From: Rothia halotolerans
GTDB taxonomy: Bacteria; Actinomycetota; Actinomycetes; Actinomycetales; Micrococcaceae
Assembly (NCBI RefSeq): GCF_004136635.1
Contig: NZ_NOIU01000001.1
Location: forward strand, 806,001-870,000
Direction: 5' to 3'
DNA length: 64,000 bases
Shown: one piece after another, positions 28,896-50,031 of the stretch
Layout: each line of letters begins with the position of its first letter
Numbering within the stretch: the stretch's first letter is position 1
The notes under the pieces: model-generated
What the model was told of the DNA's origin: nothing
The model's database searches: none
The model's input: only the letters and a program-made list of their open reading frames with translations
Translations under genes and position numbers: made by a program

Positions 28896-29669
28896 TCAGC
28901 CGGCGTCGTGCCCCAGGCCCAGCCGCGCGGAGATGCCCGCGTCGATGCGCTCGTAGACCTCGGGCGCGTAGTGGAAGGGCGCGAGGCCCCACTTGTGGCC
29001 GGGGTCGGCGTAGACGGGGCCCTCGACGCTCAGCACGTCGAACCCCAGCTCCCGCAGCCGGGCGTAGTAGGGCGCGTACAGGCGGTTGGCGTCCTGGGGC
29101 GCGAGCCCCATGCTCGCCGGGACGGGCTCGCCGCCCAGCGAGGCCTCGGCCCACGGGACTTCCAGGACCACGGTCCGCTCGAACAGGCCGGCGGCCCTCA
29201 GCCGCTCGGCGAAGTCCTCGGCGGCGTCGCTCCACGCCTCCAGGTGGTCCTCGGTGCCGAAGCCGATGAGCTGCTCCTCGGGCAGCAGGTCCATCAGCCC
29301 GGTGCCCATGATGTCCACCGAGCGGGTGACCACCCCGCCGTCGAGGAACCAGTAGGCGCCGTGGCGCTCGTCCACGAGGTCCCACACGAGCAGGTCCAGG
29401 CCCTCGGCGTCCTCGAGGCGCTCCCACAGGTCTCCGGCCCAGTCGCTGCGGACCATGCGCTCCTGGAAGGCGTGCTCCAGGCCGAGGTCCTCCGGCAGGC
29501 GCGCGGTCGCGTCCTGGTCCGCCGAGAGCAGCGACTGGCGGGCGACGTAGGCGATCAGCTCGTGGTCCTCGCCGCGGCCCGGGAGCTCCTCGTAGGCGTC
29601 CCGGGAGACGCACGAGCCGTAGATGAACACGCGACGCGGCGTGTTCCGCACTTCAGTTCCCAGAACCAT
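28896..29669 (-). CDS. DUF6270-like protein of polysaccharide loci
   Basis: Protein of 257 aa beginning with the motif VFIYGSCVSRDAYE, which is shared with DUF6270-type proteins found in capsule and glycan clusters. The GSC motif resembles the first block of SGNH-type hydrolases or acyltransferases, but I cannot identify a full catalytic set. Further blocks are LLVWDLVDERHG and HKWGLAPFHYAPEVY near the end. It is divergent from the first glycosyltransferase of the locus and shares a palindromic promoter region with it. A role in modifying the glycan is inference. Confidence 0.6.
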   Translation of the reverse strand: MVLGTEVRNTPRRVFIYGSCVSRDAYEELPGRGEDHELIAYVARQSLLSADQDATARLPEDLGLEHAFQERMVRSDWAGDLWERLEDAEGLDLLVWDLVDERHGAYWFLDGGVVTRSVDIMGTGLMDLLPEEQLIGFGTEDHLEAWSDAAEDFAERLRAAGLFERTVVLEVPWAEASLGGEPVPASMGLAPQDANRLYAPYYARLRELGFDVLSVEGPVYADPGHKWGLAPFHYAPEVYERIDAGISARLGLGHDAG

Positions 29670-29695
29670 ACTCCTGTCGGTCTTCACAGAGGACG

Positions 29696-29709
29696 AGTCT
29701 ATATAGACT
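29696..29709. promoter_or_regulatory. Perfect palindrome in the divergent promoter of the polysaccharide locus
   Basis: AGTCTATATAGACT is a perfect 14-bp palindrome containing TATAGA, which can act as a -10 box on either strand. It lies 27 nt from the DUF6270-like start and 36 nt from the glycosyltransferase start. Confidence 0.55.
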
Positions 29710-29744
29710 AGTCCCCGCCCCCATCTTCTCACTCGGAAGGCCCC

Positions 29745-31757
29745 ATGAGCTCTCCCCGCCCCAGCACCCTGCGCTCCCTCCGCCGGACCCTGTGGCATCT
29801 GCGGCACGGCGGCGTGCAGCAGGCGCGGAAGCACCTGCGGCGGGTGAGGCTGGGGCTCGACGCCGGCCCGGCCCCCCGCGCGCTCGAGGCCGGCACCGGG
29901 GCCGGGACCGCCGCGCCCGCCTCCCGCCGCTCCAACCCCTTCGGCGCCCGCGCCGGCGTCTCCCCCGGGGGCTCCCCCGCCGGCTACACCCTCGACTTCC
30001 TGCCGGCCGAGCCGACCGACCGGCCCCGCCGCTTCGCCGACGTCACGGTCGCCACCATCCTGGACGACTTCTCCGAGCTGGCCTGGGGCTACGAGTTCAC
30101 CACCGTGGCCCTCACCCCGCAGAGCTGGCGGCAGGACCTGGAGCGGCACCGGATCGACCTGCTGCTCGTGGAGTCGGCGTGGGCCGGCAGCGGCAAGGCC
30201 TGGCAGTACCAGCTCACCGGCTCCAAGGCGCCCTCGGATCAGCTGCGGGCCCTGGTGTCCCGCTGCCGGGAGCTCGGCATCCCCACCGTCTTCTGGAACA
30301 AGGAGGACCCACCGCACTTCGAGGACTTCCTGGGCACCGCCGAGCTCTTCGACGCCGTGTTCACCTCCGACTCGCGACTGATCGAGCGCTACCGCGAGGC
30401 CCTGGGCCACGACCGCGTCGCTCCCCTGCCCTTCGCCGCCCAGGACGCGATGCACAACCCCATCCGCCCGCAGTGGGGGTTCCACGAGCGCGACGTCGCC
30501 TTCGCCGGCATGTACTTCGCCCACAAGTTCCCCGAGCGCCGCGAGCAGATGGACCTACTGCTCGGCGCCGCGGAGGAGGCCTCCCGCCGGATGCCCACGG
30601 GCCTGGAGATCTTCTCCCGCTTCCTGGGCGACGACGAGCGGTACCAGTTCCCCGAGCCCTATGACCGCCGCGTCGTCGGCGGCCTGCCGTACGCGAAGAT
30701 GCTCACGGCCTACAAGGGCTACAAGGCGTTCCTCAACGTCAACTCGGTGACCGACTCGCCCTCGATGTGCGCGCGCCGGGTCTTCGAGATCACCGCCTCC
30801 GGAACGCCCGTGGTCACCACCCGCTCGGAGGCGATCCCCCGCTTCTTCACCGAGAACCAGGTTCCCGTGGTGGACACCCCGGAGCAGGCCCGCGACGTCC
30901 TGCGCTCCCTGGTCCGCTCCCCCGAGCTCAACGACCGCACCGTCCACCTGGCCCAGCGGACCATCTGGCGGCACCACACCTACTCGCACCGCGCCGTGGA
31001 CGTGCTGCGCGCGGCGGGCCTGGAGCACGACGCCGGCGGCCTCGCCTTCACCGAGCGGCTGCGGCTGCCCAGCGTGAGCGCCCTGGTCTCCACCAACCGG
31101 CCGCACCAACTCGAGCACGTGATCCGCACGGTGGGCGCCTTCCAGGACGTGGAGACGGAGCTGGTGCTGCTGACCCACGGCTTCGAGCCCGCCCCGGGGG
31201 AGGTGGCCCGGCTGGCCTGCGATGCAGGGATCGCCGACGTCCGCATCCTGCACGCCGAGCCCGGGGTGCCGCTGGGCGCGTGCCTCAACCGGCTCGTGGA
31301 CGCCGCCGCCGGCGAGGTCATGACCAAGGTCGACGACGACGACCTCTACGGCCCGCAGTACCTCGCCGACCTGCTCCGGGCCATGCGGTTCTCCGGGGCC
31401 GACGTCGTGGGCAAGCAGGCGCACTACATGCACCTGAAGGAGACGGACGCGACATTGTTGCGCTTCGCGGAGCGCGAGCACCGCTGGACCGACTTCGTCA
31501 TGGGACCGACCATCACGGGGACGGCCGAGACGTTCCGCAACACGCCGTTCGCCGAGGTATCCCGCGGGGAGGATTCGAACTTCCTAGTCAGCGTCCTGGA
31601 TGCCGGCGGGCGCATATACTCCGCGGACCGCTTCAACTTCTGCCAGATGCGCCATGCCGCGGAGGGCGGGCACGCGTGGGCGGTGGAGGATCGGGAGATC
31701 CTCGCCTCCGGAGAGCTCAAATATTACGGTCTCAATACCGCTCACATGATGACATAG
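29745..31757 (+). CDS. Two-domain glycosyltransferase (CgeB-like plus GT-A)
   Basis: Protein of 670 aa. After a basic 80-residue lead, residues about 90-420 resemble CgeB/DUF3880 glycosyltransferases of GT-B fold: LLLVESAWAGSGKAWQY, the FWNKEDPPHF motif near 184-193, ARRVFEITASGTPVVTT. The C-terminal domain (about 440-670) is GT-A-like: VSALVSTNRPHQLEHVIRTV, and the acidic KVDDDDLYGP near 527-536 is the metal/nucleotide-sugar site. Both halves look intact, so it may add two sugars in turn. GGAAGG precedes ATG 29745. It starts the rightward operon of the surface-polysaccharide locus and has a paralogue at 33440. Confidence 0.8.
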   Translation: MSSPRPSTLRSLRRTLWHLRHGGVQQARKHLRRVRLGLDAGPAPRALEAGTGAGTAAPASRRSNPFGARAGVSPGGSPAGYTLDFLPAEPTDRPRRFADVTVATILDDFSELAWGYEFTTVALTPQSWRQDLERHRIDLLLVESAWAGSGKAWQYQLTGSKAPSDQLRALVSRCRELGIPTVFWNKEDPPHFEDFLGTAELFDAVFTSDSRLIERYREALGHDRVAPLPFAAQDAMHNPIRPQWGFHERDVAFAGMYFAHKFPERREQMDLLLGAAEEASRRMPTGLEIFSRFLGDDERYQFPEPYDRRVVGGLPYAKMLTAYKGYKAFLNVNSVTDSPSMCARRVFEITASGTPVVTTRSEAIPRFFTENQVPVVDTPEQARDVLRSLVRSPELNDRTVHLAQRTIWRHHTYSHRAVDVLRAAGLEHDAGGLAFTERLRLPSVSALVSTNRPHQLEHVIRTVGAFQDVETELVLLTHGFEPAPGEVARLACDAGIADVRILHAEPGVPLGACLNRLVDAAAGEVMTKVDDDDLYGPQYLADLLRAMRFSGADVVGKQAHYMHLKETDATLLRFAEREHRWTDFVMGPTITGTAETFRNTPFAEVSRGEDSNFLVSVLDAGGRIYSADRFNFCQMRHAAEGGHAWAVEDREILASGELKYYGLNTAHMMT

Positions 31758-31761
31758 CGGC

Positions 31762-31788
31762 TTGCCAGAGGCGGGTATCCGATATACT
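31762..31788 (+). promoter_or_regulatory. Possible internal promoter before wecC
   Basis: TTGCCA (31762-31767) and TATACT (31783-31788) are spaced by 15 bp in an AT-rich 133-nt gap. The spacing is short but the -10 box is good; wecC may have its own promoter. Confidence 0.35.
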
Positions 31789-31890
31789 CCACCTCGGTTT
31801 AAAAACGCAACAATTACGGTCCGGCGAGGGCTATGCCTGGCCTTTCCCCGGTGACCACATCGCTCCCAAACATTTGAGGAACCCCTGAAT

Positions 31891-33144
31891 ATGACTTCTC
31901 AGTCAGTGTGCTTCGTCGGGCTCGGCTACATCGGCCTCCCCACCGCCGTCGTCATGGCCAACCACGGCGTCAAGGTGACCGGCGTCGACATCAATGCCGC
32001 CAACGTCGAGCGCATCAACCGGGGCGAGGTGACCATCGTGGAGCCCGGCCTGGACGAGCAGCTGCGGCAGGCGGTCGACTCCGGCAACCTCACCGCGACC
32101 ACGGAGATGGTCCACGCCGACGCCTACATCCTGGCCGTCCCCACCCCGTTCAAGGACAACTACGAGGGCGACCTTTCCTATGTCCTGGCCGCCGCGGAGT
32201 CGCTGGCGCCCCAGCTGACCGGCGACGAGCTGGTCATCCTCGAGTCGACCTCCCCGCCGCTCGCGACCCAGAAGATGGCGGAGAGGATCCTCTCCCTCCG
32301 CCCGGACCTGGTCGCCGACGGCGCCGAGAACCCCGAGGGCAAGCCTGTCCTCTACTTCGCCCACTGCCCCGAGCGCATCCTCCCCGGCAAGGCCATGGAG
32401 GAACTGATCACCAACGACCGCATCATCGGCGGCGAGACCCCCGAGGCCACCCGCCGGGCCACCGAGGTCTACGCGAGCTTCTGCGAGGGCGAGCTACTGC
32501 CCACCAACGCCGTGACCGCCGAGATGGCCAAGCTGACGGAGAACTCCTTCCGCGACGTCAACATCGCCTTCGCGAACGAGCTCTCCCTGATCGCCGACCG
32601 CCTCGGCGTCAACGTCTGGGAGCTCATCGAGCTCGCCAACCACCACCCCCGGGTGAACATCCTGCAGCCCGGCCCCGGCGTCGGCGGCCACTGCATCGCC
32701 GTGGACCCCTGGTTCATCGTCTCCGCCGATCCGGAGAACTCGCGTCTGATCCGCACCGCCCGCGAGGTCAACGACGGCAAGCCCGAGTGGGTCATCGGCA
32801 AGGTCGAGGAGGCCATGCGCGGCATCGCCGACCCCACGGTCGCCGCCCTCGGCCTGGCCTTCAAGGCCGACATCGACGACCTGCGCGAGTCGCCCGCCCT
32901 GAACATCACCAAGAAGCTCGCGGCGGACCTCCCCCACGCCACGGTGCTGACCGCCGAGCCGAACGTCGAGGAGCTCCCCGCCAAGCTGACGGGCACCCCC
33001 AACCTGGAGCTCGCCGAGTACTCGGAGGCCATCGAGCGGGCCGACGTCGTGCTGCTGCTGGTGGACCACCAGGAGTTCAAGGACCTGCCGGCCACCGCGC
33101 TCAAGGGCAAGACCGTGATCGACACCAAGGGCATCTGGCGGTAA
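31891..33144 (+). CDS. wecC: UDP-N-acetyl-D-mannosamine dehydrogenase
   Basis: NAD-dependent enzyme of 417 aa that oxidises UDP-ManNAc to UDP-ManNAcA. The N-terminal NAD fold FVGLGYIGLPTAVVMA, the substrate helix LTENSFRDVNIAFANELSLI, and the catalytic Cys268 in GPGVGGHCIAVDPWFIV are present. The GGHCIAVDPWF variant is characteristic of WecC rather than UDP-glucose dehydrogenase. Its partner WecB is encoded 10 kb away in the same locus (43662-44810). TGAGGA precedes the start. Its stop overlaps the next start (TAATG). Confidence 0.9.
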   Translation: MTSQSVCFVGLGYIGLPTAVVMANHGVKVTGVDINAANVERINRGEVTIVEPGLDEQLRQAVDSGNLTATTEMVHADAYILAVPTPFKDNYEGDLSYVLAAAESLAPQLTGDELVILESTSPPLATQKMAERILSLRPDLVADGAENPEGKPVLYFAHCPERILPGKAMEELITNDRIIGGETPEATRRATEVYASFCEGELLPTNAVTAEMAKLTENSFRDVNIAFANELSLIADRLGVNVWELIELANHHPRVNILQPGPGVGGHCIAVDPWFIVSADPENSRLIRTAREVNDGKPEWVIGKVEEAMRGIADPTVAALGLAFKADIDDLRESPALNITKKLAADLPHATVLTAEPNVEELPAKLTGTPNLELAEYSEAIERADVVLLLVDHQEFKDLPATALKGKTVIDTKGIWR

Positions 33145-33437
33145 TGGCGCACGAAGGAATCGCCGACTTACTCAATGAGCAGGGCTCGGAACTGGACAAG
33201 CTGTCCTCCGAGCTCATCAAGAGCTACCAGAAGGAACTGGAGCTCCTCGCCAAGATCCAGGATCAGCTCGCCAGGATCCAGGCTCAGGAGGAAGCTCTCG
33301 AACAGCTGAAGAGGCGGGAGAACGAGGCCAGGACCGAGGCGCTCCGCGCCCGTCAGCACCTGCGCGTTCTCCAGAACTCCCCTCTCGGACGCCTGCAGCG
33401 GAAATACTGGCAGCTGAACCGGAAGGGCAAGCGCTAA
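33144..33437 (+). CDS. Short coiled-coil protein
   Basis: Protein of 97 aa. After a short start (MAHEGIADLL) nearly the whole chain is heptad-patterned and charged (ELDKLSSELIKSYQKELELL, LARIQAQEEALEQLKRRENE), with a basic end (RLQRKYWQLNRKGKR). There is no membrane segment. The start overlaps the wecC stop and the next gene follows after 2 nt, so it is translated with the glycosyltransferases. It may scaffold or regulate chain length in the assembly complex, but that is inference. Confidence 0.7.
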   Translation: MAHEGIADLLNEQGSELDKLSSELIKSYQKELELLAKIQDQLARIQAQEEALEQLKRRENEARTEALRARQHLRVLQNSPLGRLQRKYWQLNRKGKR

Positions 33438-33439
33438 CG

Positions 33440-36112
33440 ATGTCCCCCAACACCCAGAAGCCCTCCTCCACCCCGCTCCGTCGAGAACGCGTTCAGCTGC
33501 GCATCGACCAGCTGAACGCCCGGAGGCTGCAGCTCCAGTCGCAGGAGAGCTACTTCAAGTCCTCCCACTTCGCTCGACTGATCGACTCCGACAGTCCTGC
33601 GGACGACCTCCGTCCTTCGCGCAGCCTGAGCGAGTACACCCAGCGGGTGCACAAGTATCAGCGTCGTGATCTGGTGCAGGAGATCGCAGCTGAAGCGGCG
33701 ATGCTGCCCGACCATCTCGGCTCGCGGCTCCTCCGCCCTCATCCCTACCGCGTGGGGATCGTCGCGGACCAATTCCTCTACGAGACGTTCGAAGGCACCG
33801 CCAACCTCGTCTACATCACGCCTGAGAACTACCGGGAGACGGCGTCCGGGGTGGACGTCCTCCTCGTGGCCTCCACCTGGACGGGCGTAGGAGGAGAGTG
33901 GCGGAGCGGGGCGGCCAAGAACCTGCTGAAGAACGACGTCATGCCCTTTTTCAAGGCGCAGGGCATCCCGGTGATCTTCTACTCCAAGGAGGATCCCCCC
34001 AACTACGGGAAGTTCCTGCCGTACGCCGCAGTCGCGGACTTCATCGTCACCTCGGCCGAGGAGAAGATCCCCGACTACATGACGAGCTGCCCTCAGGCAC
34101 AGGGGTACGGGGCCGTCACCTTCGGGGTGAGCCCCAAGCACCACAATCCGGTGGGCTCCAGGAAGAACCGCCGCGACGAGGTGATCTTCGCGGGGTCCTG
34201 GCTCGGCCACAAGTACCCCCAGCGGCGCGCGCACGCTCGCAACATCTTCGACGGCGTCCAGGACGCGGGCCGCGACCTGCTCATCCTGGATCGCAACTCG
34301 GAGCTCGGGAACCCCGACTACTGCTACCCGGAGGAGTACATCTCCTCGCTGGGGCCGGCGGTCGACCACAGCCTGCTGATGAAGATCCAGCGCATCACGG
34401 ACCTTCAGATCAACCTGAACTCCGTCTACGGCTCATCGACGATGTTCGCCAACCGAGTCGTCGAGCTGCAGGCCATGGGTGCCTCGGTGCTGTCCAACTA
34501 CTCGATGGGCGTCAACGACCAGTTCCCGAGCGTCCTCCTCGGGGACAGCCGCAAAGAGGTCGAGGCCATCGTCAGCTCCCGGGGCACCCCCCATCAGATC
34601 TATGCGGATCAGATGCGCGGCCTGCGCACCGCGTACTCCCATTACCTCGCACGCGACAGGATGGGGGAAATCCTCACGCTCGCAGGGTTCCCCGTCGATC
34701 GGGTCCAGCCGCGAGTCGCTCTCCTCACGCAGGAGGGCGTCTCACCGGAAGAGCTGGCCCTGCAGCCTCAGACGTACCGGAACACCGAGTTCCTCGGGGC
34801 GGACGCCGATGCGGCCGAGATGGAGAAGTTCGACCTGGTTCTCCCCCTCTCCAAGGACCTCTCCTACGATCCCTACGTCGTCGAGGACCTGGTCAACGGC
34901 TTCAAGTACGCGGACGTCGATTTCATCGAGAAGTCCCTGGACCTCTCCGCGGACGCCGGCCATCAGCAGGTCGAGCGTCCGACCCGGGGGGCGTGCGTTG
35001 CATACGACGCCGAGGCCTACCTGGGCCGCAAGGAGATGGCAGGCGGCTACCAGATCGACCCGTTCGGCGCCCGGCCGGTCGTCGAGACGGTCGAGCTGCA
35101 GACGGACGCGGACGGCGTCGAATCCGTGAGGGGAGAGCTCCCCGCCAAGTCCTTGTCGGTGATCGTCCCGATCTTCAACAACGGGCTTCATCTTCGAGAC
35201 AAGTGCTTCAGGTCCCTGAGGCGCTCCTCGGTCTTCGACCAGATGGAGATCATCCTCGTGGACGACGGGTCCACGGATGGCATCACCCCGTTCATCGCAC
35301 GGGACCTCGCCCGAGAGTTCCCCGACTCGGTGCGCGCCTACTTCAACGCGCCGGGCGGCTCCGGAAGCGCCTCGCGTCCGCGCAACCAGGGGCTCGACCT
35401 CGCCACCTGCGAGTTCGTGACCTACCTGGATCCTGACAACGAGGCCGTCGAGGACGGCTACGCCAAGCTGCTGCGCATGATGCAGAGCCACAAGGACATG
35501 GACTTCGCCATCGGTAACATGTCCAAGTGGTCCACCAGCCGGCGCAAGGTGGGCAACTCCGGGCCTCTCCGCAAGAGCCTGCGGGCTCCCGCGGCGCTGC
35601 CGAAGTCCACCACTCTCCGCAGGACCGGACCCGGCTCCATCGCCTCCATCAATTTCCAGCCGATGAGCATCCAGGCGCTCGTGGCACGCACCGACTGGCT
35701 GCGTTCGACGGGCATCCGTCAGCCCGAGGGGGCCCTCGGGCAGGACTCGCTCATGTTCCAGGAGATGCTGGAGGCCAGCGAGCTGATCGGCGTCACCGCC
35801 ACGGTGATCCACGTGTACTACGGGGCGGTCTCCAACTCCGTCGTCAATACACTGCAGCCGAAGTTCTACCGGAAGTACTTCCCGCTGGAGCGTGCCCGCA
35901 TCGACTGGCTGGAGCGGACGAACCTCATGGGCGCGTACCGTGAACGACGCCTGCGTCCGTACTTCACCGGTTGGTACCTGCATAAGTACAACAAGAACGT
36001 CTCCGAAGAGCACAAGCCTGAGTGCAAAGAGCTCATCGAAGGACTAGCGGATCTGTACGATCTGACGGTCCTGGAGGACCAGGACGGGGTCCTCTCCCTG
36101 GCGGACGGCTGA
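33440..36112 (+). CDS. Two-domain glycosyltransferase (CgeB-like plus GT2)
   Basis: Protein of 890 aa, related to the enzyme at 29745. The N-terminal half (about 100-420) carries LLVASTWTGVGGEW and FYSKEDPPNYGKF, the same blocks as the paralogue. A GT2 domain runs from about 569 to 800: LSVIVPIFNNGLHLRDKC, IILVDDGSTDG, the YLDPDNEAVEDGY acidic motif near residue 664, and GQDSLMFQEMLEA. An N-terminal coiled-coil-like segment matches the preceding small protein. It is probably bifunctional, transferring two sugars to the growing glycopolymer on the cytoplasmic side. It is the last gene of the rightward operon, followed by a strong terminator. Confidence 0.82.
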   Translation: MSPNTQKPSSTPLRRERVQLRIDQLNARRLQLQSQESYFKSSHFARLIDSDSPADDLRPSRSLSEYTQRVHKYQRRDLVQEIAAEAAMLPDHLGSRLLRPHPYRVGIVADQFLYETFEGTANLVYITPENYRETASGVDVLLVASTWTGVGGEWRSGAAKNLLKNDVMPFFKAQGIPVIFYSKEDPPNYGKFLPYAAVADFIVTSAEEKIPDYMTSCPQAQGYGAVTFGVSPKHHNPVGSRKNRRDEVIFAGSWLGHKYPQRRAHARNIFDGVQDAGRDLLILDRNSELGNPDYCYPEEYISSLGPAVDHSLLMKIQRITDLQINLNSVYGSSTMFANRVVELQAMGASVLSNYSMGVNDQFPSVLLGDSRKEVEAIVSSRGTPHQIYADQMRGLRTAYSHYLARDRMGEILTLAGFPVDRVQPRVALLTQEGVSPEELALQPQTYRNTEFLGADADAAEMEKFDLVLPLSKDLSYDPYVVEDLVNGFKYADVDFIEKSLDLSADAGHQQVERPTRGACVAYDAEAYLGRKEMAGGYQIDPFGARPVVETVELQTDADGVESVRGELPAKSLSVIVPIFNNGLHLRDKCFRSLRRSSVFDQMEIILVDDGSTDGITPFIARDLAREFPDSVRAYFNAPGGSGSASRPRNQGLDLATCEFVTYLDPDNEAVEDGYAKLLRMMQSHKDMDFAIGNMSKWSTSRRKVGNSGPLRKSLRAPAALPKSTTLRRTGPGSIASINFQPMSIQALVARTDWLRSTGIRQPEGALGQDSLMFQEMLEASELIGVTATVIHVYYGAVSNSVVNTLQPKFYRKYFPLERARIDWLERTNLMGAYRERRLRPYFTGWYLHKYNKNVSEEHKPECKELIEGLADLYDLTVLEDQDGVLSLADG

Positions 36113-36132
36113 GGCCCGCCTGAGAGACCATA

Positions 36133-36177
36133 GGGGCCTCCCCCATCCGATGCATCGGATGGGGGAGGCCCCTTTTT
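36133..36177. terminator. 40-bp perfect-palindrome terminator
   Basis: Bases 36133-36172 are a perfect 40-bp palindrome (each half GGGGCCTCCCCCATCCGATG), followed by five T. It terminates the rightward glycosyltransferase operon and, being symmetrical, may also stop the leftward transcript. Confidence 0.92.
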
Positions 36178-38259: not shown

Positions 38260-38772
38260 TCACAGCCGCTGGGAGTCGATCGAGAAGATCGCTGTTCGAG
38301 CCCATTTTCTTACAGAGTGGGGAATCTCTTCCTCCGCACGCAGGCCTACCCAGGCCGACTGTCCCGGCCCGATGAGCGGGATGTCCATGGCGTGGAGCCC
38401 CTCCGCCTCTGCTATAGGCGTCGCTTCGCTGAGGTCACCGTCCACTCCCACCCTCAGCGAGAGCGGGAGGTCACGCACAGCCGCGTCGGTCGAGATCAGG
38501 AACCTCATCCGCATCGGGAAGGAACCGTTCCTCCGCCTCTGCACATTCACGACGCCAGGTGCGCAGAGCTGCGGCGGAAGCCACAGCATATCCTGCGGCT
38601 CCCTGAGGATGGCGTGCTTCATCAGGACCGTTCCGGCCGCGTTTTCCGTGGTCCAACTCGTATGCCCCGGAATACCGCCCTTCCGGTTGTTCCGATAGTC
38701 ATCGCGCATTAACTTGTAGGTGGAGTACACAGACGGTCTTCTCCATCGAAGATCATCGTGGTCAGTCATCAT
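38260..38772 (-). CDS. Hypothetical protein of the polysaccharide locus
   Basis: Protein of 170 aa with no recognised domain, signal peptide or membrane segment. It begins MMTDHDDLRWRRPSVYSTYK and its second half has alternating strands (RMRFLISTDAAVRDLPLSLR, HAMDIPLIGPGQSAWVGLR) that suggest a beta-sandwich, perhaps carbohydrate-related. It overlaps the pyruvyl transferase stop by 11 nt and precedes the asparagine-synthase-like gene by 17 nt, so it is part of the leftward operon. The C-terminal domain of the next gene product has a similar strand-rich look, but I cannot show homology. Confidence 0.6.
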   Translation of the reverse strand: MMTDHDDLRWRRPSVYSTYKLMRDDYRNNRKGGIPGHTSWTTENAAGTVLMKHAILREPQDMLWLPPQLCAPGVVNVQRRRNGSFPMRMRFLISTDAAVRDLPLSLRVGVDGDLSEATPIAEAEGLHAMDIPLIGPGQSAWVGLRAEEEIPHSVRKWARTAIFSIDSQRL

Positions 38773-42708: not shown

Positions 42709-43575
42709 CTATGAGTTCCCTTCCGCCAGACTATGGTTGATCGCTGCAAGCGTCCTCGGCTTCGGCAGCGGCCAGTGACCCAGCGCTTTGTCATAATAGA
42801 CGGAAATATCGACCTTAGTATCTGCAAGCCTGCTACCGGACGATTTCACGCCTCTCATGAATTCAGACAGCTGCGCTTCGATGTCGTTTTTGCTCGCGGC
42901 GTTGACCAGGTATCGGATCTTCGGGATATAGCCAAGATCCTCGATGGCCTTCGCAGCTGACACCCGATCCGGGAACTCCTGGCGGACTGACTCAACATCA
43001 GACGTTCCGTAGGCGTATTCGGCCGCCTTCCGAGGGAAGTAGCTGACATATTTGCTCCAGTCCACCTGTGGGTTGTTCACCAAGGCGTATGAGCCGTCGT
43101 CTCTAGCCGCAAGCTGCAGCGCTTGGAAGCCACCTGCGCTGCTGCCGTAATAAAGATGCTGATGAGAGGGCACATCGAGACACTCGCTCACGTACTGCAC
43201 CGCCTGCGCCATCGCCGGAAGTGCGTATCGGTCGGCTTCTCCCTGCCCCCATCCGATCCTCAGGTCGTTCTCGGGCCTCAACGTGGGATCGGAGAGATAC
43301 AGGACGTGAGCGTGAAACTGGTCGGCCCAAGTGCGGCGCTGAAAGACCTCCAAGGGGGACTTGGATTCTTCGCGAGCCACCGCACCATTGGTCAGGACCA
43401 GCAGACGGTCCGAGCATTCCGGGTTGACCCACAGCAAAGCGGGCACGGCGACGAGCCCCACAAGGACATCCAATCGAAGGAAAGTTCCCGGCTCGGGAGC
43501 CAACGGGCTCCCTAACGGCACTTCTCCCATTCGGACGATCTGCGCCTCTTCCGCTATGCCCACTGGCCACTCCAT
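42709..43575 (-). CDS. Alpha/beta-hydrolase-like protein of the polysaccharide locus
   Basis: Protein of 288 aa. YYGSSAGGFQALQLA is a nucleophile elbow (G-x-S-x-G) with Ser, and late Asp and His residues (DKALGHWPLPKP) could complete the triad. The N-terminal third (VLVGLVAVPALLWVNP, LLVLTNGAVA) forms strands of an alpha/beta fold. No signal peptide is present. Such proteins in glycan loci may add or remove acyl groups, but the reaction is not shown. It lies between wecB (86-nt gap) and the large GT4 (no gap). The promoter may lie in that 86-nt gap. Confidence 0.6.
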   Translation of the reverse strand: MEWPVGIAEEAQIVRMGEVPLGSPLAPEPGTFLRLDVLVGLVAVPALLWVNPECSDRLLVLTNGAVAREESKSPLEVFQRRTWADQFHAHVLYLSDPTLRPENDLRIGWGQGEADRYALPAMAQAVQYVSECLDVPSHQHLYYGSSAGGFQALQLAARDDGSYALVNNPQVDWSKYVSYFPRKAAEYAYGTSDVESVRQEFPDRVSAAKAIEDLGYIPKIRYLVNAASKNDIEAQLSEFMRGVKSSGSRLADTKVDISVYYDKALGHWPLPKPRTLAAINHSLAEGNS

Positions 43576-43661: not shown

Positions 43662-44810
43662 TTACGGCCGGAAATCCGTGAGACGCGAACCGACTCCGAA
43701 GAATTCCTTCAGAGCTGCAGCCGTCCTCTCGGCGGCCTGGCCATCCCCATAGGGATTGACTGCGTTGGCCATCGACGCGAAGTGCTCCTCATCGTCGATG
43801 AGTGCGGTCGCCTCCTCGACGATGCGGTCGAAATCGGTGCCGATCAGACGTACGGTTCCAGCAGTCACGGCTTCAGGACGCTCGGTGTTCTCGCGCAGGA
43901 CCAGCACCGGTTTCCCCAGACTGGGCGCTTCCTCCTGGACGCCGCCGGAGTCGGTGAGGACGAACCGGGAAGCCCCGATGAGCCGGGTGAACTCGCCGTA
44001 GTCGAGGGGTTCGATCGTCAGCACGTTCTCGAGATCTTCCAGCTGCGGCAGCACCGCGGAGCGAACCTTCGGGTTCTTGTGCATCGGGAACACGAAGCGG
44101 TACTCCGGGTGTTCGAGGGCCAGATGCCGGATGGCCCGGGAGATGCTGACCATCTTCTCGCCCAGGTTCTCTCGTCGGTGCGTCGTCACCAGCACCACCG
44201 GCTGATCGGTACTGAGGAAGCTCTCGAGCTTCGGGTCCGAGAATGCGACCTGCTTCTCCACGGTGGTGAACAGCGCGTCGATCACCGAGTTGCCCGTCAC
44301 CACGATGTCCTCTTCGGCGACGTTCTCACGCAGGAGGTTGCCCTTCGACTCGGCGGTGGGGGCCAGGTGCAGCTTGGTGATCTGGGTGGTCAGCTTGCGG
44401 TTCGCTTCCTCGGGGAAGGGGGAGTTGATGTCCCCCGACCGAAGACCGGCCTCCAGATGGATCACCGGGATCTCCCGGTTGAAGGCCGCCACGGCTGCAC
44501 CCATGACTGTCGACGTGTCGCCTTGGACGATAACGGCGTCGGGCTTGAACTCCTCGAGGATGCCGTCCACGCCCTGCACCACCTTGGCCACGATCCCGTT
44601 CAGGGTCTGGTTGGCAGTCATAACCTCGAGGTCACGCACCGGTTCGATTCCGAAGAGGTTGTTGACCTGGGCGAGCATCTCCTTGTGCTGACCCGTGACC
44701 ACCGGGAGGCTCTCGAAGGAGTCCGACTCCTCCAGCGCCTTGATGATGGGGGCCACCTTGATGGCTTCGGGGCGAGTGCCGTAGATGGTCATAATGCGCT
44801 TCGGGGACAT
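43662..44810 (-). CDS. wecB: UDP-N-acetylglucosamine 2-epimerase (non-hydrolysing)
   Basis: Enzyme of 382 aa converting UDP-GlcNAc to UDP-ManNAc. Family motifs are clear: MTIYGTRPEAIKVAPIIKAL, VVTGQHKEML, VQGDTSTVMGAAVAAF, HLEAGLRSGD, PFPEEANRKLTTQI, VTTHRRENLGEKM and DSGGVQEEAPSLGKPVLVLR. Together with WecC it supplies UDP-ManNAcA. The gene stands in the leftward series with 86-96 nt gaps on both sides, so it may have its own promoter. Confidence 0.95.
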   Translation of the reverse strand: MSPKRIMTIYGTRPEAIKVAPIIKALEESDSFESLPVVTGQHKEMLAQVNNLFGIEPVRDLEVMTANQTLNGIVAKVVQGVDGILEEFKPDAVIVQGDTSTVMGAAVAAFNREIPVIHLEAGLRSGDINSPFPEEANRKLTTQITKLHLAPTAESKGNLLRENVAEEDIVVTGNSVIDALFTTVEKQVAFSDPKLESFLSTDQPVVLVTTHRRENLGEKMVSISRAIRHLALEHPEYRFVFPMHKNPKVRSAVLPQLEDLENVLTIEPLDYGEFTRLIGASRFVLTDSGGVQEEAPSLGKPVLVLRENTERPEAVTAGTVRLIGTDFDRIVEEATALIDDEEHFASMANAVNPYGDGQAAERTAAALKEFFGVGSRLTDFRP

Positions 44811-44906: not shown

Positions 44907-45728
44907 TCAGTCGTACTGACGCCGGTTCTCCGCGTAGGCGTCGTTGAGGAGGCCTAAGGCCTTCTCCTCATCGCCTTCGGCCAGAACGTGGGCGAACCAC
45001 CGGTACTTCCGGGCGACTTCTTCGGCGGACCCGTCCATCACCAGCCGGCCCTGTTCGAGCCAGATGGCCCGACTGCACAGTTCTTCGATGGTCTGGGCGG
45101 CGTGGCTGACGAGGAAGATGGTCCCGGCGTCGTCGAGGGCATCATTCATCGCCCGGCGGGATCTGTCGGAGAAGGCGGCGTCTCCGGTCGAGAGGGCCTC
45201 ATCGACCAGCAGGATCTCCGGATGGGCGGCCCTGGAGATGGCGAAGCGGAGACGGGCGCCCATCCCCGACGAATACGAGTTCATCGGCCGCTGTATAGCG
45301 TCTCCCAAGCCGGCCAGCTCCTCGATGCCGGGTCGGGCATCCTCCACCTGTTCAGGTGACATTCCCATCGCCAAGCACCCGAGCGTGATGTTCTCGGCAC
45401 CGGTCATCTCACCGATGAGGGCAGCGCTGATCCCGATGAGCGTCGGGGTGGAACGGGCGTAGACGGTCCCGGAGGTCGCGGGCTCGACCCCCGCGATCAC
45501 CCGCAGTAATGAGCTCTTGCCCGAGCCGTTGCGGCCGACCAATCCGACGAACTCGCCCCGTGAGACGCTGAAGCTGACGTCCTTGACGGCCTGCACCTGC
45601 GTCCGCGAGCCTCTGCGGAGGCCCGAGAGCAGCCCGCCAGAGGGAGAGCTCGTCTTCGACTGATAGGTCAAGGAGACCGAGTCCACCAGCACACTCGTCT
45701 CCTTGCCCAGAAGCTCACTCCCGGCCAT
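44907..45728 (-). CDS. Polysaccharide ABC exporter ATP-binding protein (Wzt/TagH type)
   Basis: ATPase of 273 aa. Walker A GLVGRNGSGKSSLLRVIAG, signature YSSGMGARLRFAISRA, Walker B ILLVDEALSTGDAAF and H-loop LVSHAAQTIEELC are typical of exporters for O-antigen, teichoic acid and related glycans. It lacks the C-terminal carbohydrate-binding domain of long Wzt proteins. Its start overlaps the permease gene by 14 nt. Together they should move the finished, lipid-linked polymer across the membrane. Confidence 0.92.
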   Translation of the reverse strand: MAGSELLGKETSVLVDSVSLTYQSKTSSPSGGLLSGLRRGSRTQVQAVKDVSFSVSRGEFVGLVGRNGSGKSSLLRVIAGVEPATSGTVYARSTPTLIGISAALIGEMTGAENITLGCLAMGMSPEQVEDARPGIEELAGLGDAIQRPMNSYSSGMGARLRFAISRAAHPEILLVDEALSTGDAAFSDRSRRAMNDALDDAGTIFLVSHAAQTIEELCSRAIWLEQGRLVMDGSAEEVARKYRWFAHVLAEGDEEKALGLLNDAYAENRRQYD

Positions 45729-46638
45729 AGCGTTCCTCCGACCTCCAGAAGAATAGGAACCCGACGACTGTCAGGCCGAGACCCCACAGCGCAACGGTCA
45801 ACCACTGGTCCCAGGAGGGGACGGTGTGGTCCAGCAGCAGAGACCGGTACATGGACAGCAGAATGAACAGCGGGTTGTTGGTGATCACGACATAGGCGGC
45901 AGGGTGATGCGCGAGGATTCGCTCGATCGGGAAGATCACGCCGGATCCGTACATCAGGATCCTGCTGAAGAAGCCGACGCCGAAGGAGATGTCCGGCAGG
46001 CTCACCGCCAGCCGCGAGACGATGAACACCACGCCCAGATTGATCAGCGACTGGAGCAGGATGAGGGGGAAGACGAGCAGCCACGAAAGGCTCGGGAACT
46101 CATGCGGCGGGATGATCATCAGCATCACGAAGACCGCCACGATGATCGGTCCGGCGGTGAGCAGCTCGCGTAGCGACATCGAGATCGCGAGGCTCGCTCG
46201 TGGGAAGCTGAAAGCCCGGATCATGGAGCGATTGGAATGGATCAGATTGGCCGACTGCCCGAGGGCGCCGGTCGTGAGCCTGAACATCAGCACGCCGACG
46301 ATGACGTAACCCGGATAGTTATCGATGCCCCGGTCGACCTGAAGCACCAGGCCGAAGATGACGTAGAAGAACGCCGCATCCAGGATCGGTTTGCCCACCA
46401 GCCAGAACGTGCCGAGCCGATGCTTGCTGTTCTTGGTCAGCACCCGCGAGCGCGCGTCGAACCACAGGAAGTGACGACGTCGCCAGATATCCCGGATATA
46501 GGCCCCGATCGAGGGGCGGGTGCCCACCGCCTTGAGCTCTCCGGCCGCGATGAGATCCCGGAACGGCTCCCGCTCCGCGAGGGCGCTGTCGTCCCAGGGA
46601 CCGGCCGGGCTCGCCCGGCGCTCGGTCTCAGTGCTCAC
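45715..46638 (-). CDS. Polysaccharide ABC exporter permease (Wzm/TagG type)
   Basis: Membrane protein of about 307 aa with a cytoplasmic N-terminus and six helices of the ABC-2 type: RHFLWFDARSRVLTKNSKHR precedes helix 1 (LGTFWLVGKPILDAAFFYVI), and later segments include LLQSLINLGVVFIVSRLAVS and SRILMYGSGVIFPIERIL, the latter a Wzm/TagG hallmark. GTG 46638 was chosen because GAGGA lies 8 nt upstream; GTG 46653, overlapping the stop of the upstream gene, is an alternative. It partners the ATPase encoded next. Confidence 0.9.
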   Translation of the reverse strand: MSTETERRASPAGPWDDSALAEREPFRDLIAAGELKAVGTRPSIGAYIRDIWRRRHFLWFDARSRVLTKNSKHRLGTFWLVGKPILDAAFFYVIFGLVLQVDRGIDNYPGYVIVGVLMFRLTTGALGQSANLIHSNRSMIRAFSFPRASLAISMSLRELLTAGPIIVAVFVMLMIIPPHEFPSLSWLLVFPLILLQSLINLGVVFIVSRLAVSLPDISFGVGFFSRILMYGSGVIFPIERILAHHPAAYVVITNNPLFILLSMYRSLLLDHTVPSWDQWLTVALWGLGLTVVGFLFFWRSEERYGRE

Positions 46639-46649
46639 TTCATCATTCC

Positions 46650-48431
46650 TCACCGGTTCACGGCCTCCGACGCCAGCCGGGCGTAGAGGTTCTCGAGGAT
46701 CTCGGCGTTGGCGGCCCAGGTCCTGGTCCGCGCGAACTCCCTTCCGGCACGGCCCAGCCGCGCCCGATCCTCCGCCGCTCGCAGCCTCCTCAGCCCGCGG
46801 GCCAGATCTTCGGCGTCCTCCGGACGGAACAGCGCCCCGCGCGGGGCGGCGTCGGGTCCGGCGTCCACCAGCTCGCGCAGCGGCGGAAGGTCGCTGAGCA
46901 GAACCGGCGTTCCCGCCGCCATCGCCTCGATGGGCTTGAGCGGGGTGACGGAACGGCACACCTCGGTGTCCCTGCGGGGTACGCAGAAGACATCCAAGGC
47001 GCGGTGATAGCTTACCGCCTGGTCCGCCGCGACTCGGCCCGTGAAGATGACCGCGGGGGCAATTCCCAGCTCGACCGCCAGCGCCCTGAGGGCGGGCTCG
47101 GCCGCGCCGGAGCCCACCAGCAGGACCCGGACGTCCTCGCCCTCGGCCCTCAGCAGGGCGACGGCGCGCAGCAGGGTGTCGAAGCCCTCGTAGCCCACCA
47201 GCGAAGAGACCGAGCCGATCCAGAGGCCCTCCTCCGCCAGACCGAGCTCGCGTCGCGCGGCCGCCGGGGCGGGCTCCCGCTCGAAGAACCGCTCCGCGAC
47301 GGCGTTGGGCAGCACCGTGATGCGCTCCCGGGGGATCCCGCGGCCCACCAGCGCATCCCGCATGACCCCGGAGAGCGTGACCACGTGGTCGGCGAGGCCC
47401 ATCATGCGGGTCTCCTGCTCCCGCAGCGCGCGGAAGCGCTCGCTGGCCCGGGCGGCGTCGTGATCCGGCTGCCCGGAGGCCCAGGTCTCCTCCAGCAGGC
47501 CGCGAACCTCGTAGACCCACGGCAGCCGCAGGCCGCGGGCCAGCGCCTCGGTCATCAGGGCGTTGGTGTAGTTGGTGGTGCAGTGCAGGACCCGGGGCCG
47601 GATCCGCTCGGCGAGCGCGGCCATCATGCGGGTCTGCTGCTCCAGGCGGGAGGGCAGGTCGGGGCCGGGGCGAATGGTGAGGGCGCGGCGGTAGCGGACG
47701 GCGTCGATCTCCTGGACGTCCTCGCCCCAGGGGATGCCGACCAGCACGGGGTAGCCCAGCCGGGTCACGACGTCGACGCCGACCCCGCGCGCGGCGAGCG
47801 CGCTCAGCAGGCGGTGGCTGCGCAGCGTGTAGCCGGACTGGGTGTGGGGCAGCGAGTTGGTGAGCACGTGGAGCGCGCGCATCGCCGGATGTTGGGAGCC
47901 GGGCTCAGCCGACGGCAGCGGGTTGCCCGTGGCGGGAAGCGCGAAGTCGGCGCGCATCGTGGCGGCCTCGCCCTCGAGCCGGCGCAGGAGGCCGCGAGTG
48001 CCAGACCGGCTCGATGCGGAGCCGCCGGCCTCTCCCCTGTCTCCCGAGAGGGCCTCCAGCGCCTCAGAGATCCTCCCCGCCTTCCACAGGGCGCGGGCGC
48101 GGGTGGCGGCCGGGAGGAGGGAGAGGTCCTGGTCCACGCCGCCGACCACCAGCGCGACCTCGGCGGCCAAACGGCGCCCGACGCCGCCGGAACGCCCCTC
48201 GAGGGCCCGGCGGCACAGCTCGCGCGCCCGGTCCTCCCGCCCGCCGAGGTACGCGGCCAGCGCCCGCGCGCCGTCCACAGGGACAGCGCCGATCCCGGCG
48301 CCGAGGGCCCGCGAGAGGCGCCGCGGAACCCGCCGGGACCCCTGCACCACGAGGTGGACGGGGTCGTCGACGGCGTGCTGGGTCAGGGTCCGCCCCATCA
48401 GCACCAGGTTGCGGAGGAGACTACGAGGCAT
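46650..48431 (-). CDS. GT4-type glycosyltransferase
   Basis: Protein of 593 aa. The GT4 domain occupies the last 400 residues: HVLTNSLPHTQSGYTLRSHR, HCTTNYTNALM, YEVRGLLEETWASG, ITVLPNAVAERFF, IGSVSSLVGYEGFDTLLRAV, VIFTGRVAADQAV and VTPLKPIEAMAAGTPVLLSD. About 190 N-terminal residues precede it, with Ala/Arg-rich helices (ARELCRRALEGR) like a TPR remnant. This is the same plan as the larger enzyme at 40192. It overlaps the upstream GT4 gene by 11 nt and the permease gene (with its alternative start) by GTGA. Confidence 0.88.
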   Translation of the reverse strand: MPRSLLRNLVLMGRTLTQHAVDDPVHLVVQGSRRVPRRLSRALGAGIGAVPVDGARALAAYLGGREDRARELCRRALEGRSGGVGRRLAAEVALVVGGVDQDLSLLPAATRARALWKAGRISEALEALSGDRGEAGGSASSRSGTRGLLRRLEGEAATMRADFALPATGNPLPSAEPGSQHPAMRALHVLTNSLPHTQSGYTLRSHRLLSALAARGVGVDVVTRLGYPVLVGIPWGEDVQEIDAVRYRRALTIRPGPDLPSRLEQQTRMMAALAERIRPRVLHCTTNYTNALMTEALARGLRLPWVYEVRGLLEETWASGQPDHDAARASERFRALREQETRMMGLADHVVTLSGVMRDALVGRGIPRERITVLPNAVAERFFEREPAPAAARRELGLAEEGLWIGSVSSLVGYEGFDTLLRAVALLRAEGEDVRVLLVGSGAAEPALRALAVELGIAPAVIFTGRVAADQAVSYHRALDVFCVPRRDTEVCRSVTPLKPIEAMAAGTPVLLSDLPPLRELVDAGPDAAPRGALFRPEDAEDLARGLRRLRAAEDRARLGRAGREFARTRTWAANAEILENLYARLASEAVNR

Positions 48432-50031
48432 CGCGGTACTCGCCCTCCTCGCGGGCGTCGGGTTCCCTGGAACCGTTCCCTGCGCCGGTGGGCCCTCCGG
48501 TGGCGGCCGGGCGCCCGGCCTCCCCCTCGGCGGGATCCGGCCCGGCAGCGCGGTGCTCCGAGGCCCGGGGGCCCTCGGTGCTCCCGCGGAGCTCGGGCGG
48601 CAGGGCCCGGGCGCGCCGGCCCTCGCGGTGCGCGGCCTCCAGCAGGCGGAGGTAGAGGGAGCTCAGGTCCTTGATGTCGGTGTGGGCGGCCGCCCAGCGC
48701 CTGCCGGCGCCGCCGTGGTCCAGCAGGGACCGGTCCGCGGCCACCTCCATCCAGTGTCTGGCCAGCGCCTTCGCATCCCCCGGCGCGGCGACGAAGCCGG
48801 CCCGGGCGTCCCGGATGATCTCCGCCGACTCCCCGGCGACCAGGGCGGAGACGTGCCGGTTGGTCGCGAGGAGCTCGTACAGCTTGGAGGGCACGGTCCA
48901 GCGGAAGGGCGCCCAGTCGCGCAGGGAGACCGCCACGGTGTCCGCCCACCGGTAGTGCTCGCCGACCTCCCGGTGGGGCACCGGATCGAGGAAGGTGATG
49001 GTGGCCAGGGACTCGCGGGCGCGCTCCTGGAGCGCCTCCCGCTCCGCGCCCGCGCCGACGAAGCGGAGCTGGACGTGCACGCCCCCCGCGGCGGCCATCC
49101 CGGCGGCGTCGATCACCGCCGCGAGCCCCTGGCTGCGTCCCAGCGTGCCCAGGTAGAGGATCCGCAGCGTGCCGGGAGAGCGCTCCGGGGCCGACGCCGC
49201 GGCGTCGTCGCCCGGAACGGGAGCCGCAGAGCCGCGGTCCGGCCCGGAAGCGGCGGGAGGGCAGCCCGGGGCTTCCCGCTGCCGCCGGAGCCCCCGGCGC
49301 TCGGCCGCCCGGTCTCCGCCGAGGTCCGGCGTCCTGGTCAGGTCCGCGCCGTTGCGGATCACCGTCACGGCCTCGACGCCGCGGGCGGTCAGCACCCCGG
49401 CGAAGCGCGCGCTGGTGGTCACCACCTGGTGGGAGCCCAGCTGGAGGCGGGTCACCAGCCGGTGCGTGAGCCCGCGGAGCAGGCCGGTGATCCCCTTGCC
49501 GGGCGCGATGCCGGGGGTGAAGGTCACCAAGTCCGGCCAGGCGTCGCGCATCTCCACCACCAGGGGCACCCGCAGGATCCGAGCGGCCACGTGCCCCACG
49601 AACAGGGAGGTCAGCGCCGGGACGGTGGTGATGACGACGTCGAACCTGCTGCCCGCCCGCGGCATGCCGACGACGAGGCTCTGGAGGCTGACGAAGGCGT
49701 GGTCGAGGGTGCGGGTGAGCACGTCCCTGCCGTGGGGCAGGAAGGGCATGCGGATCACGGTCTCGCCGAACTCGCCGGTCTCCCGCCGGTAGGGCCGCGT
49801 CCCTGCCCGCATGTCCGCGGTGAGGTCCGGATGCGGATAGTGCGGCATGGAGGTGAGCACGGTGACCTCGTGCCCGAGGGCACGCCACTCCCCCACCAGA
49901 GAGGACCACCGCCGCTGCGGGGCTCCGATCTCGGGAGCGTAGTAGTGGGAGATGAGGAGGATCCTCACGCGGGCCGTCGCCGACCCGGGATCGGCGCCTC
50001 CATGGTGTGTTCCACTGCGAATATTCCTCAT
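48421..50031 (-). CDS. GT4-type glycosyltransferase (WbuB-like)
   Basis: Protein of about 536 aa. The core begins VRILLISHYYAPEIGAPQRR and includes GHEVTVLTSMPHYP, VEMRDAWPDLVTF, TVIRNGADLTRTPD, ILYLGTLGRSQGLAAVIDAA and VPSKLYELLATNRHVSALV, the pattern of WbuB-type GT4 enzymes that transfer amino sugars. An inserted Arg/Pro-rich segment (about residues 245-290) and an 80-residue low-complexity tail are extra. The start is uncertain: ATG 50031 is used, but GTG 49968 at the conserved core is possible and neither has a good ribosome site. It is the first gene of the leftward series. Confidence 0.85.
   Translation of the reverse strand: MRNIRSGTHHGGADPGSATARVRILLISHYYAPEIGAPQRRWSSLVGEWRALGHEVTVLTSMPHYPHPDLTADMRAGTRPYRRETGEFGETVIRMPFLPHGRDVLTRTLDHAFVSLQSLVVGMPRAGSRFDVVITTVPALTSLFVGHVAARILRVPLVVEMRDAWPDLVTFTPGIAPGKGITGLLRGLTHRLVTRLQLGSHQVVTTSARFAGVLTARGVEAVTVIRNGADLTRTPDLGGDRAAERRGLRRQREAPGCPPAASGPDRGSAAPVPGDDAAASAPERSPGTLRILYLGTLGRSQGLAAVIDAAGMAAAGGVHVQLRFVGAGAEREALQERARESLATITFLDPVPHREVGEHYRWADTVAVSLRDWAPFRWTVPSKLYELLATNRHVSALVAGESAEIIRDARAGFVAAPGDAKALARHWMEVAADRSLLDHGGAGRRWAAAHTDIKDLSSLYLRLLEAAHREGRRARALPPELRGSTEGPRASEHRAAGPDPAEGEAGRPAATGGPTGAGNGSREPDAREEGEYRDAS

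What the first reader, a model, noticed from the sequence alone, without database searches (positions are those of the whole stretch)
28896..50031. Surface glycopolymer locus that may build a pyruvylated, ManNAcA-containing polymer
Two facing operons encode UDP-ManNAcA synthesis (WecB, WecC), five glycosyltransferases, an ABC exporter, a pyruvyl transferase, an asparagine-synthase-like protein, an alpha/beta-hydrolase-like protein, a DUF6270-like protein and a coiled-coil protein. Known: Micrococcus luteus teichuronic acid contains ManNAcA and glucose; Wzm/Wzt or TagGH exporters move finished polymers. Inference: this combination makes a decorated teichuronic-type wall polymer whose structure is not predictable from any cluster I can recall.
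Basis: partly seen in the sequence, partly recalled or inferred. Interest (0 to 1): 0.75.

Follow-up and report, generated by a model that had tools for sequence, protein, structure and literature searches.

The report
Wall sugar-polymer locus with swappable interior
This stretch of a Rothia genome carries genes that most likely build and export an acidic sugar polymer of the cell wall: a conserved frame shared with Micrococcus luteus surrounds an exchangeable block that probably adds pyruvate groups, so it is a new variant of a known kind of locus and not a new kind of system.

Summary
Two convergent operons (29745-36112 + and about 49968-36323 -) meet at a 19-pair stem-loop (36132-36173). 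They encode WecB, WecC, five glycosyltransferases, Wzm/Wzt, a PF04230 pyruvyl transferase, an asparagine-synthetase-fold protein, an alpha/beta-hydrolase-like and a coiled-coil protein; DUF6270 stands divergently. A 170-aa gene (38260-38772) was missed.

The locus has two parts. A frame (GT549-GT593-Wzm-Wzt-WecB ... WecC-GTa) recurs in many Actinomycetales. All of it but GTa lies within 23 kb in the M. luteus type strain, whose wall polymer is the known Glc/ManNAcA teichuronic acid. The interior is a low-GC3 block; another Rothia has other genes there. Coiled coil, GTb, ABH, GT838 and PyrT recur together in a Kocuria and in Brevibacterium permense.

Best reading: an ABC-exported, wall-anchored, ManNAcA-containing polymer with pyruvate ketals and perhaps amides. 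Open: whether ManNAcA is in the repeat or only in a primer, and whether the repeat is teichuronic or teichoic. Pyruvate on an inner ManNAcA is chemically unlikely. None of the papers I saw links this gene set to a solved polymer.

The parts
28896..29660 (-). DUF6270 protein, divergent from GTa; flanks the frame in Rothia G270 too
   Evidence: PF19786 216 bits, cut-off 27.5; 57% identity in G270; found in 33 of 80 named loci
29745..31757 (+). GTa, CgeB-like glycosyltransferase with a C-terminal GT2-like part (frame gene)
   Evidence: PF13524 73 bits; PF00535 23.2, just under its cut-off 23.3; 46-57% identity in five relatives
31891..33144 (+). WecC, UDP-ManNAc dehydrogenase (frame gene)
   Evidence: NF008286 564.9 bits, cut-off 459; found in 73 of 80 named loci
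33144..33437 (+). CC, 97-aa protein with coiled-coil look
   Evidence: only sub-threshold Pfam hits; 33% in Kocuria G404, 28% in B. permense; coiled coil judged by eye
33440..36112 (+). GTb, GT2 glycosyltransferase with CgeB-like N-terminal part
   Evidence: PF00535 55.6 bits; PF13524 17.3, under cut-off; found in 10 of 80 named loci
36132..36173 (+). terminator-like stem-loop between the convergent operons
   Evidence: 19 pairs, 14 G-C, T-rich tail; 10 such sites in the region against 7.3 expected (sd 2.8), this one with the longest stem
36323..38242 (-). AsnLike, asparagine-synthetase-fold protein without N-terminal nucleophile Cys, with an extra C-terminal beta-sandwich (frame open to 38305)
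   Evidence: TIGR01536 only 19 bits; six rows aligned; model and fold match
   Evidence: 34% in Kocuria G404; hhalign to AsnLike C-terminus E 4.4e-4, probability 33%; model (pLDDT 69) nearest a CBM15 xylanase chain, E 3.2e-4
38762..40195 (-). PyrT, polysaccharide pyruvyl transferase
   Evidence: PF04230 69.8 bits, cut-off 25.3; CsaB model only 33.4 of 213.1; 46% and 45% in Kocuria G404 and B. permense
40192..42708 (-). GT838, GT4 glycosyltransferase with a 430-aa N-terminal part
   Evidence: PF00534 94.9 bits at 641-810; TIGR04063 253.3 bits, under its cut-off 442
42709..43575 (-). ABH, alpha/beta-hydrolase-like protein
   Evidence: Pfam Abhydrolase_1 E 0.11 only; GSSAGG by eye; 50% in B. permense
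43662..44810 (-). WecB, UDP-GlcNAc 2-epimerase (frame gene; only one in the genome)
   Evidence: TIGR00236 448.2 bits, cut-off 210.15; one match in the genome
44907..45728 (-). Wzt/TagH-like ATPase of the exporter (frame gene)
   Evidence: PF00005 69.4 bits; best NCBIfam models are polymer exporters, all under cut-off
45715..46638 (-). Wzm/TagG-like permease of the exporter (frame gene)
   Evidence: PF01061 33.1 bits, cut-off 26.9; NF050109 37 of 380; GTG start
46650..48431 (-). GT593, GT4 glycosyltransferase (frame gene)
   Evidence: PF00534 94.4 bits; found in 51 of 80 named loci
48421..49968 (-). GT549, GT4 glycosyltransferase, WcaI-like (frame gene; another start at 50031)
   Evidence: PF13579 53.5 bits; NF007640 99.7 of 276; found in 47 of 80 named loci; starts

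Best explanation
This is a cell-wall glycopolymer locus of a Rothia species, made of a conserved frame and an exchangeable cassette. Shown by sequence: gene families, operon layout, recurrence of the frame around different interiors, and the shared cassette in a Kocuria and in Brevibacterium permense. Inferred: WecB and WecC turn UDP-GlcNAc into UDP-ManNAcA; GT549, GT593 and GTa start and extend a lipid-linked chain that contains ManNAcA; the cassette enzymes GTb and GT838 add species-specific residues; PyrT puts a pyruvate ketal (from PEP) on a diol of a co-sugar; AsnLike, an ATP-dependent amide-forming fold without its own glutaminase, amidates carboxylates, most plausibly of ManNAcA; o170 may hold the glycan; ABH may remove or move an acyl group; Wzm/Wzt export the chain; an LCP enzyme coded elsewhere in the genome anchors it to peptidoglycan. 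Likelihoods: wall polymer with ManNAcA about 0.85, pyruvylated about 0.7, amidation by AsnLike about 0.4.
For: Curated-model hits for WecB and WecC, PF04230, exporter. Same frame in Rothia G270 with other genes inside. Frame genes other than GTa within 23 kb in the genome taken as the M. luteus type strain, whose polymer is a wall-bound Glc/ManNAcA teichuronic acid (PMC3005890). LCP-like genes beside related loci in 31 of 94 sequences; this genome has three LCP genes elsewhere, one of them 56% identical to the LCP that stands beside the Kocuria frame. CC, GTb, ABH, GT838 and PyrT together in Kocuria G404 and B. permense. PF04230 in or within 20 kb of the locus in 13 of 50 genomes, 1.1 expected. 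Cassette GC3 0.70-0.79 against 0.92-0.97 for most frame genes.
Against: No polymer of this organism is known. GT specificities are not predictable from these hits. PyrT scores far under the CsaB equivalog (33.4 of 213.1). AsnLike is far under the asparagine synthase model and its lysine was not tested. WecB, Wzt and Wzm have middling GC3 (0.84-0.86) and GTb 0.89, so the border of the cassette is not sharp. In 14 of 60 loci interior GC3 is not lower. The frame also stands beside TagF-like genes in relatives. No LCP-like gene in the window.
Confidence: 0.66

Rival explanations
1. The polymer is a teichoic acid (alditol-phosphate chain). ManNAcA made by WecB and WecC occurs only in a short shared linkage unit, and the pyruvate sits on an alditol or a neutral sugar.
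For: TagF-like sequence near the frame in 6 of 94 locus sequences, two of them one locus of R. aerolata, and PF04464 beyond DUF6270 in B. permense. B. permense is reported to have a mannitol teichoic acid with rhamnose and pyruvic acid acetal (title in a reference list only; another strain), and the cassette's PF04230 gene is the only one over cut-off in the B. permense genome.
Against: No TagF-like match in the window or in the three own-genome stretches around LCP genes; the M. luteus relative makes a teichuronic acid (PMC3005890). The whole Rothia genome was not searched for PF04464.
Confidence: 0.2
2. It is a capsule or released exopolysaccharide, not a peptidoglycan-bound polymer.
For: Wzm/Wzt-type exporters and pyruvyl transferases also serve capsules (family knowledge); no LCP-like gene in the window; a heparinase II/III-like gene stands 3 kb away.
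Against: LCP-like genes beside related loci in 31 of 94 sequences, the M. luteus genome among them; M. luteus polymer is covalently wall-bound (PMC3005890).
Confidence: 0.12
3. Pyruvate on ManNAc (not oxidised by WecC) serves as an anchor for SLH-domain surface proteins, as in Paenibacillus alvei.
For: WecB also yields UDP-ManNAc; CsaB of P. alvei pyruvylates ManNAc (PMC6801904 passages).
Against: No SLH domain found in this genome, while the same search rings in 4 of 14 control genomes; CsaB model far under cut-off.
Confidence: 0.02

Closest known systems
Teichuronic acid system of Micrococcus luteus
   Same: Homologues of WecB, WecC, GT549, GT593, Wzm and Wzt within 23 kb, an LCP-like gene next to GT549; polymer with ManNAcA (PMC3005890, first quarter and passages)
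   Different: No GTa match over 1e-5 and no PyrT, AsnLike, o170, GTb or ABH match in the 60 kb looked at; a second dehydrogenase instead
Pyruvylated teichuronic-type polymer of Promicromonospora sp. VKM Ac-1028 (2,3-Pyr-GlcA)
   Same: Teichuronic-type repeat with a pyruvate ketal (PMC6801904 section 3.4)
   Different: GlcA, not ManNAcA; the section seen names no genes
Brevibacterium permense wall polymer locus (strain Ln26)
   Same: CC, GTb, ABH, GT838, PyrT inside the same frame, bounded by WecB and WecC
   Different: No o170; its AsnLike is of a more distant kind (29%) and interrupted as it lies; TagF-like gene nearby
Streptomyces griseus Utr locus (teichuronic-like polymer on wall teichoic acid)
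   Same: Actinobacterial teichuronic-like polymer with a mannuronic-type sugar and variable gene content between species (PMC13274773 passages and section on cluster diversity)
   Different: ManNAc3NAcA pathway and attachment to teichoic acid as told in the paper; not compared by sequence here
CsaB pyruvyl transferases
   Same: PF04230 family
   Different: 33.4 bits of 213.1 to the CsaB model; no SLH domain in the genome

Membership tests
M. luteus-type teichuronic acid locus | UDP-ManNAcA genes WecB and WecC | tested here: met
   TIGR00236 and NF008286 over cut-off
M. luteus-type teichuronic acid locus | same frame genes as in M. luteus | tested here: met
   six of the seven frame genes within 23 kb, GTa missing there
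M. luteus-type teichuronic acid locus | Glc and ManNAcA transferase specificities | not testable with these tools
   only GT family hits
M. luteus-type teichuronic acid locus | phosphate-free uronic-acid repeat bound to peptidoglycan | not testable with these tools
   needs wall chemistry; no TagF-like match in the window
Peptidoglycan-linked glycopolymer | LCP ligase | tested here: inconclusive
   three LCP genes in the genome, none in the window
TagF-type teichoic acid locus | PF04464-like polymerase in the locus | tested here: not met
   tblastn with the B. permense protein: best window match E 2.1; whole genome not searched
PF04230 pyruvyl transferases | family score over cut-off | tested here: met
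   69.8 against 25.3
CsaB pyruvyl transferase (TIGR03609) | equivalog score | tested here: not met
   33.4 of 213.1
Asparagine synthetase, glutamine-hydrolysing (TIGR01536) | family score and N-terminal nucleophile Cys | tested here: not met
   19 of 267.1; no Cys next to the start in six rows
Asparagine-synthetase fold superfamily | fold and pyrophosphate-loop residues | tested here: met
   Foldseek 1q19 E 5.2e-11, TM 0.41 by query and 0.52 by target; G261, D263, S264 invariant
Wzm/Wzt or TagGH exporter | ABC-2 permease and ATPase pair | tested here: met
   PF01061 and PF00005 over cut-off; specific NCBIfam exporter models under cut-off
SLH-anchoring pyruvylated polymer | SLH-domain proteins in the genome | tested here: not met
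   0 matches

The most novel reading that the evidence does not exclude
WecB, WecC, GT549, GT593 and Wzm/Wzt form a common ManNAcA-based priming and export frame of Actinomycetales walls. Different polymer types (teichuronic, TagF-type teichoic, pyruvylated or amidated) are plugged into it as exchangeable interior cassettes, a serotype-like switch of the main acidic wall polymer. The Rothia cassette would make a ManNAcA-linked polymer with both pyruvate ketals and uronamides.
Probability: 0.3. Interest if true: 0.68.

Novelty: new variant of a known kind. Interest (0 to 1): 0.45.

Why it matters
It ties a wall polymer long studied by chemistry in M. luteus to a gene frame found in many actinobacterial genera, and points to one interior block as the likely source of pyruvate decoration in three of them. 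That would make wall polymers known mostly by structure testable through single gene deletions. Such polymers can decide which toxins bind a cell: a Streptomyces teichuronic-like polymer was shown to be a toxin receptor (PMC13274773, passages).

Tried and rejected
Claim that the combination is unique: rejected. SLH anchoring: no SLH domain. Plasmid-borne cassette: no PyrT match in 72,556 plasmid records and three weak partial AsnLike matches. PyrT clade elsewhere: full length only in this genome of 345 of the class, 8 others weak and partial; 2 of 345 of the family, 6 others weak and partial; in the genus own plus one weak partial match, 2 of 35. AsnLike: 7 of 248 genomes of the order, the own one included; three relatives over most of the length, three weak and partial. 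A two-motif pattern for pyruvyl transferases found only the three known ones in 94 sequences and missed the PF04230 genes inside L090 and L121, so it is too blunt and is not used as a count. Naming by catalase: searches used another catalase type and the wrong strand, so their results mean nothing for the naming; others (near relative; identical) are valid. PDB sequence search: nothing for AsnLike, one chance-level match for PyrT. Promoter scan: 0 found, 2.0 expected by shuffling. Papers: nine searches; in their listings I saw none that links this gene set to a solved polymer; a paper I took for the 2010 M. luteus genome paper is not held, nor are most subscription papers.
Full report
Gene content. 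The window lies in a genome of 3.04 Mb in 10 contigs. The finding's genes are confirmed (parts). One gene was missed, o170 at 38260-38772. GT838 and PyrT overlap by 4 bases and ABH abuts GT838. Both operons end at one stem-loop, 36132-36173, with 19 pairs; 10 terminator-like sites were found in the region against 7.3 (sd 2.8) in shuffles, but this one has by far the longest stem.

A frame around an interior. I searched the window proteins by tblastn on fetched loci. In Rothia G270 the order is GT549, GT593, Wzm, Wzt, WecB (54, 54, 60, 68, 75% identity), then other genes, then WecC (79%), GTa (62%) and DUF6270 (57%). PyrT, AsnLike, o170, GTb and CC gave no match there at E 1e-5; ABH gave a partial 26% match and GT838 matched by its glycosyltransferase part only. 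Flanks are at most 10 kb and matches are by likeness to the window's own proteins, so these are lower bounds, and several GT838 matches cover only its common C-terminal half. TIGR00236 is over cut-off in 13 of 35 Rothia genomes.

The Micrococcus link. G382 has a catalase identical to PDB 1GWE over 379 residues and one contig of 2,501,097 bases. That 1GWE is the M. lysodeikticus (luteus) enzyme, and that this length is the published size of M. luteus NCTC 2665, are recalled and come from no call. It carries homologues of GT549, WecC, GT593, Wzt, Wzm and WecB at 962.6 to 985.4 kb and two LCP-like genes, one directly before GT549. It has no GTa match and no cassette match in the 60 kb looked at. 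M. luteus teichuronic acid is a Glc/ManNAcA polymer bound to peptidoglycan, made by a complex of a glucosyltransferase and a ManNAcA transferase; the parts seen name no genes for it (PMC3005890, first of four parts and passages).

The cassette. G404 holds GTb (46%), ABH (34%), AsnLike (53%), o170 (34%), PyrT (46%) and GT838 (45%) inside the frame, CC (33%) before GTb, an LCP gene before GT549, a second AsnLike and a second dehydrogenase. Brevibacterium permense Ln26 holds CC (28%), GTb (38%), ABH (50%), GT838 (41%), PyrT (45%) and a second ABH (25%) in a row after GTa, followed by WecB and WecC; beyond DUF6270 stand a TagF-like gene, an interrupted AsnLike (29%) and an LCP-like gene. At such identities these are not recent transfers. 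GC3 in the window is 0.70-0.79 for AsnLike, o170, PyrT, GT838 and ABH, 0.83 for CC, 0.89 for GTb, 0.84-0.86 for WecB, Wzt and Wzm, and 0.92-0.97 for GT593, GT549, GTa, WecC and DUF6270. In 60 of 94 locus sequences that had both kinds of gene, interior GC3 was lower in 46 (Wilcoxon p 2.7e-6). The p value is too small, since the loci are related, some are held twice, and second copies of frame genes were counted as interior; the M. luteus genome, B. permense and G391 go the other way.

Pyruvyl transferases in general. PF04230 occurs in 37 of 50 genomes with GTa (50 of the 80 were searched; 71 matches). Sugar genes cluster anyway, so the excess shows association and not function. The window's own PyrT clade is rare: full length in 1 of 345 genomes of the class and 2 of 345 of the family.

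AsnLike and o170. Six rows align with G261, D263 and S264 of the pyrophosphate loop invariant and no Cys next to the start. The model (pLDDT 75.4, pTM 0.71) is nearest to carbapenam and beta-lactam synthetases, TsnB9 and asparagine synthetases (E 5.2e-11 to 5.8e-8; TM 0.40-0.45 by query, 0.51-0.57 by target), with weaker matches to CBM chains such as 2w3j (E 1e-3), which I assign to the C-terminal beta-sandwich by position, the output giving no ranges. o170 aligns by profile with that region (hhalign E 4.4e-4 but probability only 33%); its low-confidence model (pLDDT 68.9, two rows) is nearest a CBM15 xylanase chain (E 3.2e-4), followed by many unrelated beta-sandwich proteins. Uronamide formation by WbpS-type asparagine-synthase-like proteins is known (PMC7468200, passages), which makes amidation of ManNAcA plausible; the catalytic lysine was not tested here.

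Teichuronic or teichoic. There is no TagF-like match in the window (best E 2.1). TagF-like sequence lies near the frame in 6 of 94 sequences, R. aerolata counted twice, and in B. permense. B. permense is reported to have a pyruvylated mannitol teichoic acid (title in a reference list, another strain), and in its genome the cassette's PF04230 gene is the only one over cut-off, the other match scoring 22.6 against 25.3. So pyruvate could sit on an alditol there, and the frame's ManNAcA could belong to a shared linkage unit. For this Rothia I still prefer a teichuronic-type chain; its whole genome was not searched for PF04464.

Literature. The pyruvate review (PMC6801904: abstract, passages and section 3.4) gives a pyruvylated teichuronic-type polymer with GlcA in Promicromonospora and holds the word ManNAcA 0 times. 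In the listings of nine searches I saw no paper that joins wecB, wecC and a pyruvyl transferase to a solved polymer; this speaks for those listings and an open-licence library only.

Verdict. A real locus, in the main correctly described, of a known kind with a new interior. Interest is moderate and would rise if the frame-and-cassette reading held in deletion tests.

Noticed in passing
window 53176-54852 (-): Heparinase II/III-like gene (PF07940 59.6 bits, cut-off 24) with GC 0.55 and GC3 0.66 in a 70-75% GC neighbourhood. Heparinase-like matches (22-26% identity) also lie in 14 of 80 related loci and in the interior of G270 and G391; perhaps a lyase for such polymers.
   Followed up: partly
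L212 about 5678-7719: B. permense has an AsnLike gene (82% to a relative in G128) that is interrupted as it lies, beside a TagF-like and an LCP-like gene.
   Followed up: partly
L043 1538-3523 and 3628-4980: Kocuria G404 has a second AsnLike (29%) and a second UDP-sugar dehydrogenase (29% to WecC) between GT838 and WecB.
   Followed up: no
window 40192-42708: GT838 has a 430-aa N-terminal part without a Pfam match; it is shared with Kocuria G404 and B. permense.
   Followed up: no
window 24975-28889: Ordinary flank: gluconate permease and gluconokinase, then an ArgP/LysG-type regulator divergent from a LysE exporter.
   Followed up: yes
window 50322-53034: Between the locus and the heparinase-like gene: a flavin-reductase-like gene, an M20 peptidase and a pyridoxamine-oxidase-like gene, with high GC3 for the last two.
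   Followed up: no
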